This document shows positions 1 through 31,504 of a stretch of DNA of 31,504 nt, piece after piece. A model generated the notes under the pieces. The model saw only the letters and a list, made by a program, of their open reading frames with translations. It did no database searches and was not told the origin of the DNA. Location: positions 1 to 31,504 of the IMG/VR virus record IMGVR_UViG_3300042429_000192. One strand, given 5' to 3'. The translations under genes were made by a program, and so were the position numbers. The stretch's first letter is position 1; every line of letters starts with the position of its first letter. This stretch comes from a virus.

Positions 1-166
1 GACTTTTTCACCCTGCGACATTGCCTCATATTTGGCCGTGATTCCCTTAGACAATGCAAATGCTTTTACATTGGCCTCAGTCATTACAATACCCAAACGT
101 TTTAACGATTCTGTTTCACCTGTAAACACTCCATTAAGGGCCGTTGTGACCTCCTCAATATTCATG
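1..166. repeat. Terminal direct repeat, left copy (contig overlap)
   Basis: Bases 1-166 match 31339-31504 at every position except 127 (C here, A at 31465). The repeat lies inside the tape measure gene, and joining the ends at 1/31338 restores one uninterrupted reading frame. The mismatch changes a GTG valine codon to GTT, so it is silent. The simplest reading is assembly overlap of a circular or circularly permuted genome. A true terminal repeat of the virion DNA is possible but less likely, because it would interrupt the gene on linear DNA. Confidence 0.93.
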
Positions 167-3079: not shown

Positions 3080-3133
3080 TTTTTTATTGATTAAGTTAAT
3101 ACCCAAAGTTAGGCAATATTTGATTTTAATTTA

Positions 3134-4396
3134 TCATGGAACAATTCTTAAATATCCTGAACCATCTTGCCATAAATATCCTGAACTTAAACCAGCTGAT
3201 GATGTTGGCAAGCCACTAATTGAAATTCCAAATGCATTCATGGTAATGGTATCATTACTTGATTGATTGTAAAAAGTCAACAAATTCCCATCCATGTAAA
3301 TATTATTTGAACTACCTGATCTGTATATTTCAATTGTTCCTGTACCTGTGGCTGAATCAGCATTAGCACGGAATCCATTTGCAACGTGTAATTTGACATA
3401 CGAATATGGTGATGTGGTATTTATGCCCACTCGGCCATCTGCAAGTATTCGCATACGTTCGGTATTAGCAGTCTGTAATTGAAATGAATGGTTTGATTGA
3501 GTACCTATCCATCCTCCTGAACTTGCTGCAAGCATATCAACGTTAACAGAATTTGTTGTATCACTTGCTCTTATATAAGCAGTTCCTGCTGCTGAAACAT
3601 CTAATAATCTTGTTGGTGATGTAGTTCCTATCCCTACATTTCCATTTGTTAAAATGCGCATCCTGCTTGAACCACCTACATCAAAATTTAAGGGATTAGA
3701 TGCCTCGGCAACGATATCCATTCTACCAGCATAAGCCTGAATAAATCCAAACCGTGTCACATTGGTAGCATCATAAAATGAAATAAATGGTGTACTTGCA
3801 TACATCCTAATCATCTCAGGTCCACCATATAAAATTGCTTTACCTGCTGATAATGTTCCATTTACATAGGTTTCTGAATTAATTGAAACTAATATACCTG
3901 TATCCTGAATATTGCCTATTCCAATTGAACTTGTGCCTGTCCATTTAGTCACATAATTATTAATACCTGATCCTGTTATTACACCGCTACCTGATACGGT
4001 CCAGCTACGGTCCGCACTTAAATCATAAGTAACACCATTAATTGTTAATGTTCTTGATGGTGGCACAGGTGTATACCCTAATGCAGATGTCACCATTCCA
4101 CTATTAATTCCACTAATAAAACCACTTGGATTTGTTGCATTGTATGGTGTAAAACCTAATGCACCTGTTACATCAGAACTGCTTAATGTAACCGCACCTG
4201 TACGTGTATTAAATGATGTGACACCTCCACCAGCTGCTGATGTTGTAATAATATTACCACTTGAATCAAATCCAAGTAATCCTGCCAAAGTACCTGTGAA
4301 TGATGTTGCCGATGTATAGGCAGGTGCATTCAGCTGATTAGTACCTAATGATTTTATTCCATTAATTAATTCGCCTAAATCTTGATTCTTTGACAT
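3134..4396 (-). CDS. Short tail fibre protein, paralogue of the large fibre
   Basis: A 420-residue fibre-like protein. Residues about 55-140 contain SFNTRTGAVTLSSSDV, TSALGYTP and RTLTINGVTYDLSADRSWTV, all nearly identical to a stretch of the 1574-residue fibre. Further on are GNVGIGTTSP and GRVGINTTSP repeats, typical of Bacteroidota phage fibres. Unlike the large fibre it ends at SGYLWQDGSGYLRIVP and has no S74 chaperone domain. It starts one base after the large fibre stop, so the two are co-translated. It probably forms a second trimeric fibre or a distal adaptor; host-range function is inferred. Confidence 0.8.
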   Translation of the reverse strand: MSKNQDLGELINGIKSLGTNQLNAPAYTSATSFTGTLAGLLGFDSSGNIITTSAAGGGVTSFNTRTGAVTLSSSDVTGALGFTPYNATNPSGFISGINSGMVTSALGYTPVPPSRTLTINGVTYDLSADRSWTVSGSGVITGSGINNYVTKWTGTSSIGIGNIQDTGILVSINSETYVNGTLSAGKAILYGGPEMIRMYASTPFISFYDATNVTRFGFIQAYAGRMDIVAEASNPLNFDVGGSSRMRILTNGNVGIGTTSPTRLLDVSAAGTAYIRASDTTNSVNVDMLAASSGGWIGTQSNHSFQLQTANTERMRILADGRVGINTTSPYSYVKLHVANGFRANADSATGTGTIEIYRSGSSNNIYMDGNLLTFYNQSSNDTITMNAFGISISGLPTSSAGLSSGYLWQDGSGYLRIVP

Positions 4397-10342: not shown

Positions 10343-10778
10343 TTAGCTGTTGAATCTTATTTGATACCTCTAAAATACCACGAAAATATGTAAAATCTTC
10401 ATCCTCATCTGTCAAATATGAAATGCCCTCATTTATGCAGGTAAAAACTTGAAATCCATCGGCAGAAAGGTCAAAGTAACCCGCTGACCTTGTGCGAATT
10501 AAATTCAAAACCTGTGACATTGCCGTGTTAACATCCAACTCCCCACCTGAATCACCTTGGAATCGTGTAATTATTTCAATTCGTGTCAATGTTTCACTTA
10601 TAAATGATGTTTGATTAAAATCTGCCTCATTTGTGCTGACCGAATACACGTGAATGTATGGAAATGTGCTGGATGATGGCACACGATTGAACACAGGCAA
10701 TGCAGATCCGTGCAGGATCACCGTACCTGTTAATCGCGTTATGATCGCTTTGCGAATAAATTGAATTGCCTCTAACAT
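10332..10778 (-). CDS. Tail completion protein, gp17/DUF3168-like
   Basis: A 148-residue protein in the position of the SPP1 gp17/lambda gpU-type tail terminator or completion proteins. It follows an HK97 gp10-like protein. Family-like features are the N-terminal helix MLEAIQFIRKAIITRL, VPSSSTFPYIHVYS and RIEIITRFQGD followed by a helical AMSQVLNLIRTR. Such proteins cap the tail tube or join tail to connector. The start overlaps the previous stop by one base. Assignment is by order and pattern; sequence similarity in this family is weak. Confidence 0.75.
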   Translation of the reverse strand: MLEAIQFIRKAIITRLTGTVILHGSALPVFNRVPSSSTFPYIHVYSVSTNEADFNQTSFISETLTRIEIITRFQGDSGGELDVNTAMSQVLNLIRTRSAGYFDLSADGFQVFTCINEGISYLTDEDEDFTYFRGILEVSNKIQQLNGD

Positions 10779-11218
10779 TATTTTGTTATGTTCTTGATTT
10801 TGCGATCTACTCGCTTGATTAATTGATCAAATTCAACACGTAATGCAGGAAAAAAGAATGGCCTTGCATAAACGAAACCACGGCCCTTACCTTTGCCTTT
10901 AAATTGTGCAGCATACGTTTCAGGAAAACCCACATCTCTTAAAAATTTTAATGTGACACCACGGCCCGTTCCAAATTCTATGTATGGTGCATATTTTGCA
11001 CCTGCTCTAATCTCAATATTAGTTTGATTCACACGTTCGGCTCTAATGGATTGCATCAAATTGCCTGTATCATGTGGTGCCGTTAGCTTCATTCGCTGTG
11101 TGGCTTTGAATGCTGTCGTGGCCAACTCATTAGACAATTCCTGTTTGGACAGATCCTGCAATTGCTTGATCTTATTGCGTAACATCGCCAAATCTGTTTT
11201 GTCTACACTTATGTTCAT
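10778..11218 (-). CDS. HK97 gp10-like head-tail/tail component
   Basis: A 146-residue protein matching the HK97 gp10 family pattern. The helical N-terminus is followed by TAPHDTGNLMQSI around residues 48-60, a hallmark, then AKYAPYIEFGTG around residues 73-84, and a C-terminal RPFFFPALRVEFDQLIKRV. These proteins act at the connector-tail interface of siphophages. It overlaps the upstream adaptor gene by four bases (ATGA), so translation is coupled. Confidence 0.88.
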   Translation of the reverse strand: MNISVDKTDLAMLRNKIKQLQDLSKQELSNELATTAFKATQRMKLTAPHDTGNLMQSIRAERVNQTNIEIRAGAKYAPYIEFGTGRGVTLKFLRDVGFPETYAAQFKGKGKGRGFVYARPFFFPALRVEFDQLIKRVDRKIKNITK

Positions 11219-11547
11219 TGTCCTATTTTAGTCAATGTGGATTTTACCCAAAAGTTTTCAAACGTTTGGAACGTGCTGTTTAATCTGTATTCTGCATTGT
11301 TGCCTTCAACCTGCAATACATCCTCATTTTGAATTAAATCAGCTGTTGGCTTGCGCATAATAATCTCGATTTTTACCTCATGTAAACGGATGCCATTTTT
11401 TGCATCAATATCACCTGATGTTTCCTGCACTCTTGCCCAATATGTTCCAACCGTTGATTTGGTAGATGTCCACCCACCAAACCCATCGGCTGTTTTTGTC
11501 AATCGCTTAACGATCACACGTTGTTTTAAAATGCTTGAATTATCCAT
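11215..11547 (-). CDS. Head-tail adaptor/stopper, SPP1 gp16-like
   Basis: A 110-residue beta-rich protein of the head closure family. The pattern VIVKRLTKTADGFGGW followed by YWARVQETSG and later NSTFQTFENFW is typical of the SPP1 gp16/HK97-type stopper, which closes the connector and prevents DNA leakage until the tail attaches. It starts on the upstream stop (TAATG) and overlaps the gp10-like gene by four bases. Its place between gp6-like and gp10-like genes supports the call. Confidence 0.85.
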   Translation of the reverse strand: MDNSSILKQRVIVKRLTKTADGFGGWTSTKSTVGTYWARVQETSGDIDAKNGIRLHEVKIEIIMRKPTADLIQNEDVLQVEGNNAEYRLNSTFQTFENFWVKSTLTKIGQ

Positions 11548-22008: not shown

Positions 22009-22758
22009 TTAAATAAATTCACCATTATCACCAATCTTTACATCCATCTCAGCCATCATTGCAATCAATGTTAGGTAGCATTGCTTTTTACATTCAGCAA
22101 TAAGTTCGATTTCGTTGGTGTGCCGTGGTTTTAATTTTGTGTAGATCTCACGTTTTTTCTCAATTGGACAGGTCCAAATGTTGTATTTGATCAGATCATC
22201 GTACAGGAATGATAAACCATATTCAGCCCATTGCATTTTTCCTTTTGTTTCAGCTGCTTTTTTAAATGATTCTGCATGATCATTGGCATTTTTAATGGCC
22301 ATTAATCTCAGCTGATCATCAGATGGTATTGGCTTTGGCTCCTCAATCTGCTTTGGTATGTTTTTGGTTTCCTGCCTTGCATATTCAATGTATGCATTCA
22401 TGATTCTGCCAAAGTATTCACAGCTAAAATTCTCATAACATTTAACATCCACCGTAAACTTTCCTGCAACTGCCATTTCAAATGCCAATTTAATCTCGGC
22501 TAACGTCTGATTTGCGTAGCTGGATCGAATGAAACTGATCAACACGTACTTTTCCTCATCCGTTGGTAAATTGTTTCCCCTTAGGCCAACTATGATCATG
22601 ACATACCTAAGTATTTTTTTTAGGTCCTCATCATCCAGCTGTCGGATCACAGGCTGATTCTGTGCTTGAACAATTACAGCTGCTTGTCCCTTACCAATTT
22701 CGTAAGGCTTCCATACGGTCAATGCTTGTGCCTCTTGGTTTGTCTGTTGGTTTGTCAT
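22009..22758 (-). CDS. Replication-associated protein, possible helicase loader
   Basis: A 249-residue protein encoded directly after the replication initiator, overlapping it by 68 bases. After a polar start (MTNQQTNQEAQALTVW) it contains a helical region with DEEKYVLISFIRSSYANQTL, EIKLAFEMAVAGKF and YENFSCEYFGRIMNAYIEY. This pattern resembles the alpha-helical fold of phage helicase loaders/inhibitors of the G39P kind. No Walker motif is present, so it is not a DnaC-type ATPase. The C-terminal half is charged and helical. The loader role is inference from neighbourhood and fold-like pattern; it may instead be another initiator accessory. Confidence 0.62.
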   Translation of the reverse strand: MTNQQTNQEAQALTVWKPYEIGKGQAAVIVQAQNQPVIRQLDDEDLKKILRYVMIIVGLRGNNLPTDEEKYVLISFIRSSYANQTLAEIKLAFEMAVAGKFTVDVKCYENFSCEYFGRIMNAYIEYARQETKNIPKQIEEPKPIPSDDQLRLMAIKNANDHAESFKKAAETKGKMQWAEYGLSFLYDDLIKYNIWTCPIEKKREIYTKLKPRHTNEIELIAECKKQCYLTLIAMMAEMDVKIGDNGEFI

Positions 22759-23332
22759 ATTTGGTTTTGTTATTCATCCACGTTTTAATGCGTCTGCTAA
22801 TGTCAAAATATTTTTCGTTTTCCCATCGCTGTTTCCCTTTTTTATCAGGTTCGGTCCAATAGCTTTTAAAGTTTTCAATTTCATCACCTAATTGATCAAG
22901 GTGTGGTGTGATTAAATCAGAAAAATCCACCTTTACTTCTATTGTTTTATTAATATCTTTCTTTGTTAAATATTGCTTTGTATTGTTTGATGGTTTTCCT
23001 GTATCAGGGATTTCCTGTAACGGGTTTCCTAACGTTAGGTTTTCCGCGACAGGGATTTCGCATAGTAGGTAATTTATCATCCAATGTCCGTACTCATTTT
23101 GATACCTTTCGCGCCTTAAAAATCCATTTGATTCCAATTCCTTTAATGCCGAATTGATTGTTGGTAAACCTTCTTTTAGCTGGTTTGATATGCGTTCCGC
23201 ACTAAACTCCCACCCATCAGGTTTTGATTGAATGTAGGCAAATAATCCTTTGGCTTTTAGGGATATTTCCGTGCTATTTACCAAATCATTTGGGATTGTG
23301 GCATAGCGATTTTTGATAATCAGTTTTTTCAT
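22691..23332 (-). CDS. Replication initiator, winged-helix (lambda O/RepO-like organisation)
   Basis: A 213-residue protein; start ATG 23332 (MKKLIIKNRYATIPND), preferred over a TTG six codons upstream. Residues 14-75 form a winged helix (STEISLKAKGLFAYIQS, FSAERISNQLKEG, INSALKELESNGFLRRER), typical of phage replisome organisers. Residues about 92-113 are a linker encoded by iteron-like repeats. The C-terminal part has FKSYWTEPDKKGKQRWENEK and FDISRRIKTWMNNK, a common ending for such proteins. By analogy with lambda O it would bind repeats inside its own gene and recruit the host helicase via a loader. Iteron binding is inferred. Confidence 0.82.
   Translation of the reverse strand: MKKLIIKNRYATIPNDLVNSTEISLKAKGLFAYIQSKPDGWEFSAERISNQLKEGLPTINSALKELESNGFLRRERYQNEYGHWMINYLLCEIPVAENLTLGNPLQEIPDTGKPSNNTKQYLTKKDINKTIEVKVDFSDLITPHLDQLGDEIENFKSYWTEPDKKGKQRWENEKYFDISRRIKTWMNNKTKYDKPTDKPRGTSIDRMEALRNW
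22995..23060. repeat. Iteron-like repeats, candidate replication origin
   Basis: Five short repeats with the core GGAAA(A/T)CC(C) on the minus strand occur with tttcc/tttcg starting at plus positions 22995, 23011, 23025, 23041 and 23056, that is at 14-16 base spacing. CAGGGATTTC occurs exactly at 23005-23014 and 23050-23059. A 12-bp palindrome, CCTAACGTTAGG, lies at 23028-23039. Directly beside them 22921-22980 is very AT-rich (about 22% G+C by hand count), as expected of an unwinding element. The array sits in the middle of the initiator gene, as in lambda. Confidence 0.62.
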
Positions 23333-24453: not shown

Positions 24454-24762
24454 TTAAAATGGTAAATCATCTGTTAATGGCATTGGTGCCTGTGGTTTGT
24501 TTGCCATCTGTGGCACGTTTACCTGTGGTGCTGGCTGATTCTTTGTCGGCAGTCTGAAATTGCCTAAGATTGTCATTTTCACCTTTGCATCACGTTCCTC
24601 TTTGGTAGGTGACTGCGTTACGAATCCGTAATTTCCATACTGATCCATTTCATCATTTAAAAATCCTGAAATGTTAATCCATTGATTGCCATTTTTATCT
24701 GTAACGTAACGTGACTGATCTAATTTGTTGGCATTGATTGATAATGTTATAAGCTGTCCCAT
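24454..24762 (-). CDS. SSB-like protein with acidic C-terminal tip
   Basis: A 102-residue protein. The N-terminal two thirds (LITLSINANKLDQSRYVTDK, NGNQWINISGFLN, then VKMTILGNFR) look like an OB-fold strand pattern. A proline/glutamine-rich linker follows (PAPQVNVPQMANKPQAPMP), ending in TDDLPF. An acidic tip ending in hydrophobic residues after a flexible linker is the hallmark of bacterial SSBs, used to bind partner proteins. Shorter than host SSB. Its place directly after the ERF annealing protein genes fits single-strand DNA protection in recombination and replication. Fold is inferred by pattern. Confidence 0.78.
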   Translation of the reverse strand: MGQLITLSINANKLDQSRYVTDKNGNQWINISGFLNDEMDQYGNYGFVTQSPTKEERDAKVKMTILGNFRLPTKNQPAPQVNVPQMANKPQAPMPLTDDLPF

Positions 24763-29779: not shown

Positions 29780-31504
29780 TATCCTAGTCGTTTATTTTGC
29801 TTTTCTGCTCTTTGTAATACCAACAATAAATCCTGTCCGCTTACCTTTGTTTCCAAGGTAAATGCGCCACCGCCTCCACCTGTGTCTAACATTCCCTGTA
29901 ATTTGTTCAATGGTGCAATTACCTCAGGATTTGATCGTGCGCCTGCGTACTCACCCATGATTCCCATTGTTGGACCGCTAACGATACCACCTGCTGCAAA
30001 CTTTGGAATTGATGCAAATGATGACAATACACCACCAATTGCCATGGCCATAAATGCAGGCTGTGTAAATACAGCTGCCGGTCCTGTTGCTGATGCTGAT
30101 TTTGTTGCATTAGCTGTGGCCGTTGCCATTGCCAATGCTTTTTGCATGATAATTTCTTTGATCACATATTGCGCTAATTGCAATGTTGTTTGAGCCATTC
30201 CTTGTAAAAATCTACCCAAACCTGTTGTTGCTTCACCCATTGAAGACATAATGCTTTGACCTAAAACTCCAAATGCACCTGAAACAGCCTCAGCCATTGT
30301 TTGGCCTTTAACCATTATTAAATCAAATTCCTGTTGTTTCAATGCCAAATCCTCAGCAATTATTCTTGAACTTTCTTGGATGCTTTCATTCATTATTTGA
30401 AAAGGTGTTTTAATCTTTTCAGTAACCTCAGCTACATCATAACCTAATGCCTTTAATGGATCACCTAAAGATGGCCAACGTAATTCTAGAAATTCGTTTT
30501 TTAAAGCTAAAGTTTCTTTTCTTGCGTCAGCAACTTTTTCTGCTAATGATTGAATTGATGCAGCTAATCCATATTGTTCTTTAATGGCATCACCATTTCC
30601 ACCATCACCTTTTGGCATTAAATCAACACCACCTCCTGTTGGATCAATACCTGCTGTTGCAGTTGTAGTTTTTAATAGTTGCCTATTTGCTACAATAAAT
30701 GCCTTTGCTGCTGCAATTTTATCCTCATAAGTTTTGGCAGTATTTCGATCCTGATTTGTTTGTGATTTATAAATTGCATCCTGTTGCGCAGCAGATTTTC
30801 TTAATACTTCATAGGCTGTTATCGATGCATATAACTCTTTATTTTTTGACCTTATTGCATTTGCATTTGTTTTTTCTTCATCACTTAATTTTGCTAATGC
30901 ATCATTTGCCCCACTTAATGCTGATTGTTGTTCTAATGCCGCACCAGCCATTGCCGAAATAAGACCAATAATTCCTGCGGCTTTTATTGTTGTTCCTAAA
31001 TTAGCAAATGCAATACGTAATAATTTTACACCTGTAATTACTTTTGGTATTACCGTTCCAGCTAAATAAAGAAATGGCCCAGCTAAAGCTGCAATTCCTG
31101 CGGCACCTGTTATAAATAATTTTGTGGCTGCTGGTAATTCTTTTAAATAACTTAACATGCCATTTAAAGCATGTATTACTTTTGTGACAGCAGGTAAAAC
31201 AACTTGTCCAAATGTGACTCCAAGTTCCTTCATGGTTTCTTGGAATATGCGCATTTGATTGGCTGCTCCATCGCTTGTACGTGCAAAATCACCTTGTGCA
31301 TTTGTCGTGCTACTCATTACGTATTGATAACGTAACATGACTTTTTCACCCTGCGACATTGCCTCATATTTGGCCGTGATTCCCTTAGACAATGCAAATG
31401 CTTTTACATTGGCCTCAGTCATTACAATACCCAAACGTTTTAACGATTCTGTTTCACCTGTAAAAACTCCATTAAGGGCCGTTGTGACCTCCTCAATATT
31501 CATG
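29779..31504 (-). CDS. Tail tape measure protein, C-terminal part (begins at 585 across the junction)
   Basis: This frame holds most of the 714-residue tape measure protein. On the circle it follows base 1 at position 31338; bases 31339-31504 duplicate the left end. A hydrophobic region (about residues 265-330 of the full protein, ELPAATKLFITGAAGIAALA and following) is usual for tape measure proteins and may help DNA cross the inner membrane. Then come a long helical, alanine/lysine/glutamine-rich part and an alanine-rich stretch (ALAMATATANATKSASATG). The C-terminus has glycine-rich GGIVSGPTMGIMGEY and a terminal helix LLLVLQRAEKQNKRLG. It overlaps the distal tail gene start by one base. Confidence 0.93.
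   Translation of the reverse strand, partial: MNIEEVTTALNGVFTGETESLKRLGIVMTEANVKAFALSKGITAKYEAMSQGEKVMLRYQYVMSSTTNAQGDFARTSDGAANQMRIFQETMKELGVTFGQVVLPAVTKVIHALNGMLSYLKELPAATKLFITGAAGIAALAGPFLYLAGTVIPKVITGVKLLRIAFANLGTTIKAAGIIGLISAMAGAALEQQSALSGANDALAKLSDEEKTNANAIRSKNKELYASITAYEVLRKSAAQQDAIYKSQTNQDRNTAKTYEDKIAAAKAFIVANRQLLKTTTATAGIDPTGGGVDLMPKGDGGNGDAIKEQYGLAASIQSLAEKVADARKETLALKNEFLELRWPSLGDPLKALGYDVAEVTEKIKTPFQIMNESIQESSRIIAEDLALKQQEFDLIMVKGQTMAEAVSGAFGVLGQSIMSSMGEATTGLGRFLQGMAQTTLQLAQYVIKEIIMQKALAMATATANATKSASATGPAAVFTQPAFMAMAIGGVLSSFASIPKFAAGGIVSGPTMGIMGEYAGARSNPEVIAPLNKLQGMLDTGGGGGAFTLETKVSGQDLLLVLQRAEKQNKRLG
31339..31504. repeat. Terminal direct repeat, right copy (contig overlap)
   Basis: Identical to bases 1-166 except A at 31465 instead of C at 127. 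See the left copy; together they allow closure into a circle of about 31,338 bp. The silent difference may be a population variant or sequencing error. Confidence 0.93.

What the first reader, a model, noticed from the sequence alone, without database searches (positions are those of the whole stretch)
22921..23060. Iteron array and AT-rich flank inside the replication initiator gene
Five GGAAA(A/T)CC-type repeats at 14-16 base spacing, a 10-base exact repeat (CAGGGATTTC at 23005 and 23050) and a 12-bp palindrome (23028-23039) lie in the linker-coding part of a winged-helix initiator gene. A 22% G+C stretch lies next to them. Lambda and several other phages place their origin in the same part of their initiator gene. 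The repeat spacing is near 1.5 helical turns, different from lambda.
Basis: partly seen in the sequence, partly recalled or inferred. Interest (0 to 1): 0.7.

Follow-up and report, generated by a model that had tools for sequence, protein, structure and literature searches.

The report
Phage origin inside its initiator gene
A small bacterial virus keeps the DNA switch that starts copying its genome inside the gene for the protein that throws the switch, an arrangement already known from phage lambda and some plasmids, and comparison with more than a hundred relatives shows the DNA repeats themselves, not just the protein they encode, are preserved.

Summary
On the minus strand, five iterons of the GGAAA(A)YCC type lie on a 15-nt grid at 23060-22985, in the disordered linker of a 213-aa winged-helix (HTH_36) initiator gene (22691-23332), followed by a 21% G+C block (22921-22990). 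Synonymous change falls about four-fold over the iterons in the window's clade (0.107 vs 0.420, p=9e-6). In 76 diverse relatives the linker's tandem period is almost only 15 (or 30) or 16 nt; 16-nt arrays run through all codon frames, so DNA is selected rather than peptide. One relative has a second, intergenic copy matching its own initiator's iterons. Another, with the same neighbours and C-terminal domain but a different DNA-binding domain, lacks the array. The rep gene of plasmid pPR9, whose rep region reportedly replicates autonomously, has the same layout. After the iterons many relatives carry 2-3 copies of AGTAATAAAGA, which I propose is a sequence-specific unwinding element; the window has only a degenerate version. 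It works like lambda oriO or pSK41/pPR9 rep and is a new member of that known kind. Binding and origin activity were not tested.

The parts
22691..23332 (-). Replication initiator gene, 213 aa: N-terminal winged helix (HTH_36), disordered linker, small helical C-terminal domain
   Evidence: Pfam HTH_36 E 4.5e-7; phrog_428 'replication initiation protein' E 4e-14; AlphaFold model; best PDB match primosomal DnaB 5wtn E 6e-4, also RepA_N structures 4pql, 4pt7, 5kbj weakly
23063..23332 (-). Winged-helix DNA-binding domain (residues 1-90), the inferred iteron-binding part
   Evidence: pLDDT 72-87 over residues 1-90; iterons are replaced together with this domain in L004
22985..23060 (-). Iteron array: five GGAAA(A)YCC-type repeats on a 15-nt grid, read on the minus strand
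   Evidence: Coordinates and units; conserved in relatives; synonymous diversity 0.107 vs 0.420 in the wHTH codons, p 9e-6
23053..23060 (-). Iteron core 1, CGAAATCC
23038..23045 (-). Iteron core 2, GGAAAACC
23022..23029 (-). Iteron core 3, GGAAACCC
23008..23015 (-). Iteron core 4, GGAAATCC
22992..22999 (-). Iteron core 5, GGAAAACC
22922..22981 (-). AT-rich block, proposed DNA unwinding element: four degenerate 15-nt units (ACAAAGCAA, ACAAAGAAA, AATAAAACA, GTAAAG), homologous in position to the AGTAATAAAGA repeats of relatives
   Evidence: 21% G+C; synonymous diversity 0.127 vs 0.415, p 1e-5; AGTAATAAAGA repeats in relatives. In the window itself the 15-nt periodicity of this block is weak (codon-shuffle p 0.046, synonymous p 0.34)
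22691..22924 (-). C-terminal domain and tail (residues 137-213), exchangeable between initiators; presumed helicase or loader contact
   Evidence: Shared with L001, L019-L041 and with L004, which has another N-terminal domain; pLDDT 75-82 over residues ~141-190
22009..22758 (-). Conserved downstream gene of the same module, 249 aa, function unknown
   Evidence: Present in 40 of the compared loci; phrog_26016, unknown function

Best explanation
The segment is the phage's replication origin, embedded in the gene of its own initiator. The winged-helix domain binds the five direct repeats, spaced about 1.5 helical turns so that neighbouring bound molecules face opposite sides of the helix. Assembly on this array next to the AT-rich block opens that block, and the flexible linker carries the C-terminal domain to it to recruit the helicase or its loader. 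The linker peptide itself is largely a passenger: its sequence is dictated by the DNA signals it has to encode. Shown here: the repeats, their conservation at the DNA level, their linkage to the winged-helix domain, and the conserved layout of iterons followed by an AT block. Inferred: binding, melting, helicase loading and origin activity.
For: (1) Synonymous diversity falls over iteron codons in four separate clades: 0.107 vs 0.420 (window clade, p 9e-6), 0.040 vs 0.243, 0.037 vs 0.432, 0.058 vs 0.192. (2) In 76 representative initiators, 9-mer repeats in the linker exceed synonymous recodings of the same protein (3.5 vs 2.65 copies; 21% of genes p<0.05) but not in the N- or C-terminal parts (2.6% and 0%). 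(3) Significant tandem repeats in 64 of 76 genes, with periods 15, 30 and 16 nt only, apart from three of 18 that are the AT block; the 16-nt class changes codon frame at each repeat. (4) The same iteron is read in different frames in L048-L055 (MKTLC/TETHT vs ENP) and in Brevibacillus plasmid L234 (ENPDT and GKPGY), and inverted in L029, L037-L044. (5) L237 has the module in its initiator gene and a second intergenic copy with its own iteron sequence, four at 15 nt, followed by three AT repeats at 16 nt. (6) L004, whose neighbours are >=82% identical and whose C-terminal domain is the same, has Lin1244_N instead of HTH_36 and no such array. (7) Blind scan of 2.9 million viral contigs for three GGAAAAYCY: 63 of 75 sites lie in HTH_36-type genes, spacing 15, 16 or 14, never 17. 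(8) pPR9 rep, reported to support autonomous replication as a mini-replicon with a pfam13730 N-terminal domain (PMC5703833), has the same 15-nt iterons and AT block.
Against: No binding or replication assay and no read depth here. GC skew has no switch at 23 kb. In the window the unit-wise synonymous test is only borderline (p 0.047), and the AT block carries only a degenerate form of the family motif (3 or more mismatches). No exact DnaA box lies near the array, which is neutral.
Confidence: 0.9

Rival explanations
1. The repeats are a protein feature: a flexible ENPxx pentapeptide linker that needs its amino-acid sequence, with DNA repetition as a by-product of recent duplication and codon bias.
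For: In the window the repeats are in frame and the protein is repetitive; some relatives do not exceed the synonymous null on their own.
Against: Synonymous constraint, out-of-frame and inverted iterons, an intergenic copy, and a disordered linker (pLDDT 30-37).
Confidence: 0.04
2. The array is an operator by which the initiator represses its own operon or controls copy number, and the origin lies elsewhere.
For: Iterons of many replicons also serve in autoregulation (general knowledge); no skew signal marks the origin.
Against: The array lies mid-gene, promoter-like matches in the region are no more than in shuffles, it is followed by an AT-rich block throughout the family, and pPR9 rep with this layout is a functional replicon (PMC5703833).
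Confidence: 0.05
3. The linker is mainly a recombination joint where DNA-binding and C-terminal domains are exchanged, and the repeats are kept as homology for crossover.
For: C-terminal domains are swapped just after the linker (L002, L016 vs L001).
Against: Iterons differ between clades and follow the winged helix, and L004 exchanged the array together with its DNA-binding domain, which fits specificity rather than shared homology.
Confidence: 0.01

Closest known systems
Phage lambda oriO inside the O gene (and Stx-phage relatives)
   Same: Iterons with a central A-tract and an adjacent AT-rich tract, both in the middle of the initiator gene (PMC7466680)
   Different: In lambdoid phages two extra iterons add 13 residues, about 19.5 nt each (PMC7466680), against 15-16 nt here; the initiator family is HTH_36, not Phage_rep_O
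pPR9 / pUSA03-type chimeric Rep of staphylococcal plasmids
   Same: HTH_36-like N-terminal domain, 15-nt GAAAATCCGGATACG iterons in the linker, AAT-rich block after them; mini-replicon replicates (PMC5703833)
   Different: C-terminal domain is Bac_RepA_C; plasmid with a pSK41-type rep control region (PMC5703833); HTH_36 score of pPR9 is below Pfam's cutoff (16.7 vs 25)
pSK41 RepA_N initiator
   Same: wHTH N-terminal domain binds four Rep boxes in the central, linker-coding part of the gene (PMC5703833); weak fold match of the model to RepA_N structures
   Different: Different sequence family (RepA_N vs HTH_36)
RK2/TrfA-type iteron origins with repeated 13-mers in the unwinding element
   Same: Iterons next to repeated AT-rich elements; Rep binds one strand of these as single strand (PMC4081077)
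   Different: Rep proteins with two winged helices; origin not inside the rep gene (general knowledge); the motif differs from AGTAATAAAGA

Membership tests
HTH_36 phage replication initiators (phrog_428/270 etc.) | HTH_36 winged-helix N-terminal domain | tested here: met
   PF13730 30 bits vs cutoff 25; phrog_428 E 4e-14
HTH_36 phage replication initiators (phrog_428/270 etc.) | Linked replication and recombination genes | tested here: met
   Conserved module with ERF annealing protein and the 89-, 102- and 249-aa genes
Initiator-embedded iteron origin (lambda/pSK41/pPR9 kind) | Direct repeats inside the initiator gene | tested here: met
Initiator-embedded iteron origin (lambda/pSK41/pPR9 kind) | Adjacent AT-rich unwinding region | tested here: met
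   21% G+C block directly after the iterons; unwinding itself not testable here
Initiator-embedded iteron origin (lambda/pSK41/pPR9 kind) | Repeats selected as DNA | tested here: met
Initiator-embedded iteron origin (lambda/pSK41/pPR9 kind) | Initiator binds the repeats; segment drives replication | not testable with these tools
   No assay available; functional precedent within HTH_36-type proteins only for pPR9 (PMC5703833)
Lambda O family (Phage_rep_O) | Sequence membership in the O-protein family | tested here: not met
   No Phage_rep_O match in Pfam; only weak PHROG O-like matches, best E 5e-4
RepA_N family | RepA_N domain | tested here: not met
   No RepA_N match; only a weak fold resemblance
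DnaA-trio / BUS chromosome origins | DnaA box next to 3'-GAT-5' trios | tested here: not met
   No exact TTATNCACA near the array, nearest 1-mismatch site 22907; the AT motif is not GAT trios in the required orientation (PMC8287927)

The most novel reading that the evidence does not exclude
HTH_36 initiators across phages of several bacterial phyla and some plasmids share a portable, frame-independent bipartite origin: iterons at 15 or 16 nt (about 1.5 helical turns) followed about 16 nt later by two or three copies of a strand-specific AGTAATAAAGA-type element that the initiator or its loader recognises as single strand. The winged helix and its iterons change together as a specificity cassette while the AT element stays nearly constant.
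Probability: 0.5. Interest if true: 0.65.

Novelty: new member of a known kind. Interest (0 to 1): 0.47.

Why it matters
It places a replication origin in an otherwise unannotated phage and gives a rule for finding origins in a large group of phages and plasmids: look in the linker of the HTH_36 initiator for 15- or 16-nt iterons followed by AGTAATAAAGA-like repeats. The family is also a clear case of DNA signals dictating a protein sequence, and its natural domain swaps make initiator-iteron specificity directly testable. The conserved AT element poses a concrete question about what reads the unwinding region.

Tried and rejected
GC skew as an origin marker: one-sided through the window, no extreme at 23 kb. 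DnaA boxes: fewer than chance, none exact near the array. DnaA-trio reading of the AT block: the TAA/TAG phasing is strong (351 vs 203 expected), but the orientation and letters do not fit 3'-GAT-5' trios running away from the binding sites (PMC8287927, PMC10201434); a resemblance to the 5'-TnnT-3' DnaD element remains only a lead. The 12-bp palindrome: not conserved. Iteron versus recognition-helix covariation: clades look distinct, but it was not tested against phylogeny. No close DNA relative among annotated phages, no PDB sequence match, no NCBIfam match. An alignment of distant members (A3) was too divergent to scan with.

Full report
WHAT IS THERE. The gene at 22691-23332 on the minus strand encodes a 213-aa protein with an HTH_36 winged helix (PF13730, E 4.5e-7) and matches to phage replication initiation families (phrog_428, E 4e-14). 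AlphaFold gives a confident domain at residues 1-90, a disordered stretch at 96-134 (pLDDT 30-37) and a helical C-terminal domain around 137-192. The best solved-structure match is the primosomal protein DnaB (5wtn, E 6e-4); RepA_N initiators follow weakly. Read on the minus strand it is five 15-nt units, GAAATCCCTGTCGCG, GAAAACCTAACGTTA, GGAAACCCGTTACAG, GAAATCCCTGATACA, GGAAAACCATCAAAC, then an AT-rich block of 21% G+C. The window is a virus record whose ends overlap by 166 bases at 165 identities, so the genome is probably circular, about 31,338 bp.

IS IT MORE THAN CHANCE. GGAAAWCC with up to one mismatch occurs 64 times in the window; five of these lie in 70 nt here. Recoding the same protein with synonymous codons gives on average 2.3 repeat copies against 4 observed (0 of 60 reach it), although a stricter unit-by-unit score is only borderline (p 0.047). 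The decisive evidence is comparative.

DNA-LEVEL CONSERVATION. Relatives were collected from viral contigs, genomes, phages and plasmids, giving 108 non-redundant genes. In the nine-member clade of the window, synonymous differences run mostly above expectation over the wHTH codons and drop to 0-0.56 of expectation across the array; one 9-codon stretch has 0 against 71 expected. Mean synonymous diversity is 0.107 against 0.420 (p 9e-6), and three other clades with their own iterons show the same. The AT block is also constrained (0.127 vs 0.415), though AT codon bias may add to that. Even nonsynonymous changes keep the iteron: window GGAAATCCC (Ile) is GGAAAATCC (Asn) in L001 and L002.

FRAME INDEPENDENCE. 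In 64 of 76 representatives the linker region has a significant tandem repeat. Allowed periods were 11-30; found were 15 (27), 30 (11), 16 (23) and 18 (3, in the AT block). These counts cover iterons and AT block together, since the scanned region spans both. The 16-nt arrays change codon frame at every copy. The window itself scores best at 16 over its last units, because its cores alternate 16 and 14 within a 15-nt grid. In L048-L055 the first two iterons are read as MKTLC and TETHT instead of ENP. In a Brevibacillus plasmid one gene reads the same iteron as ENPDT and then GKPGY. Another clade carries an inverted iteron. L237 is the clearest case: its initiator gene holds TTCGAAAATCGAACG iterons and AGTAATAAAGA, and about 7.9 kb away an intergenic region holds four copies of that iteron at 15 nt and three AT elements at 16 nt. 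The 15-nt spacing is therefore not just a codon effect; it is close to 1.5 helical turns.

LINK TO THE DNA-BINDING DOMAIN. L004 has the neighbours of the window at 82-96% identity and the same C-terminal domain, but its N-terminal domain is Lin1244_N instead of HTH_36, and the GGAAAWCC array is gone; it has different repeats of its own. In L002 the winged helix and iterons are kept while the C-terminal domain differs. A scan of 2.9 million viral contigs for three GGAAAAYCY, blind to proteins, put 63 of 75 sites inside HTH_36-type genes, and some of the rest look like truncated members; spacing in them was 15 (182), 16 (63) or 14 (11), with none at the also permitted 17.

THE AT-RICH ELEMENT. 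Many relatives carry AGTAATAAAGA right after the iterons: exact in 24 of 76 genes against 4.5 in synonymous recodings, in two reading frames (SNKD, and VIK in 6 genes against 0.18 expected), in 2-3 copies mostly 15-19 nt apart, the first often 15-18 nt from the last iteron core, never on the other strand. Serine is AGT in 71% of cases in the block against 19% elsewhere, while TCT and TCA, with the same G+C, do not rise. Scanning all viral contigs for two copies of the motif gave 32 loci, of which 29 lie in initiator genes by HMM, one is a truncated member, one is the intergenic origin of L237 and one is another protein; the synonymous control with TCA in place of AGT gave 3, none in an initiator. 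Rep proteins of iteron plasmids bind repeated 13-mers of their unwinding element as single strand (PMC4081077), so a similar role is plausible. In the window the motif is degenerate (ACAAAGCAA, ACAAAGAAA, AATAAAACA, GTAAAG at 15 nt), so this part is weaker for the window than for the family.

WHAT IS KNOWN. Lambda keeps iterons and an AT-rich tract in the middle of gene O (PMC7466680). The pSK41 initiator binds four boxes in the linker part of its own gene, and pPR9, a chimera with a pfam13730 N-terminal domain, supports autonomous replication as a mini-replicon (PMC5703833). The pPR9 gene read here has GAAAATCCGGATACG iterons at 15 nt and an AAT-rich block. The window is therefore a new member of a known kind. 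I found no paper in the held library that describes the 15/16-nt rule or the AGTAATAAAGA element; subscription papers, including the 2006 review of phage replication modules, could not be read, so prior description is possible.

LIMITS. Representatives are related and not fully independent; the nulls use codon usage of single genes; E-values of my own HMM are approximate. No binding, melting or replication experiment was possible.

Noticed in passing
window 1-166 and 31339-31504: The window's ends repeat each other (165 of 166 identical), so the record is probably a complete circular genome of about 31,338 bp.
   Followed up: partly
L237 (IMGVR_UViG_3300021963_000003) 3120-3230 and 10743-11438: A 64-kb contig with two origin-like modules of the same iteron type: one inside the initiator gene and one intergenic about 7.9 kb away.
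   Followed up: yes
L004 1947-2633: Natural swap: same neighbourhood and C-terminal domain as the window, but a Lin1244_N domain and its own repeats (CGACCGTTGAACGACCGTT) instead of HTH_36 and its iterons.
   Followed up: yes
L259 near 4516 (reverse complement): AGTAATAAAGA pair inside an ORF of another, unrecognised protein of initiator-like layout; may show that the AT element is shared beyond HTH_36.
   Followed up: no
L029, L037-L044 linkers: One iteron is inverted (GGTTTTCC, encoding RGFP) and in some members forms an 18-nt palindrome TTTTCCTCATGAGGAAAA with its neighbour.
   Followed up: partly
window 22009-22758: Conserved 249-aa gene directly downstream of the initiator in 40 compared loci; unknown function, possible helicase-loading partner by position.
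   Followed up: no
window 24454-24762: 102-aa protein ending in DDLPF, resembling the acidic tail of single-strand binding proteins; no family match with known function.
   Followed up: no
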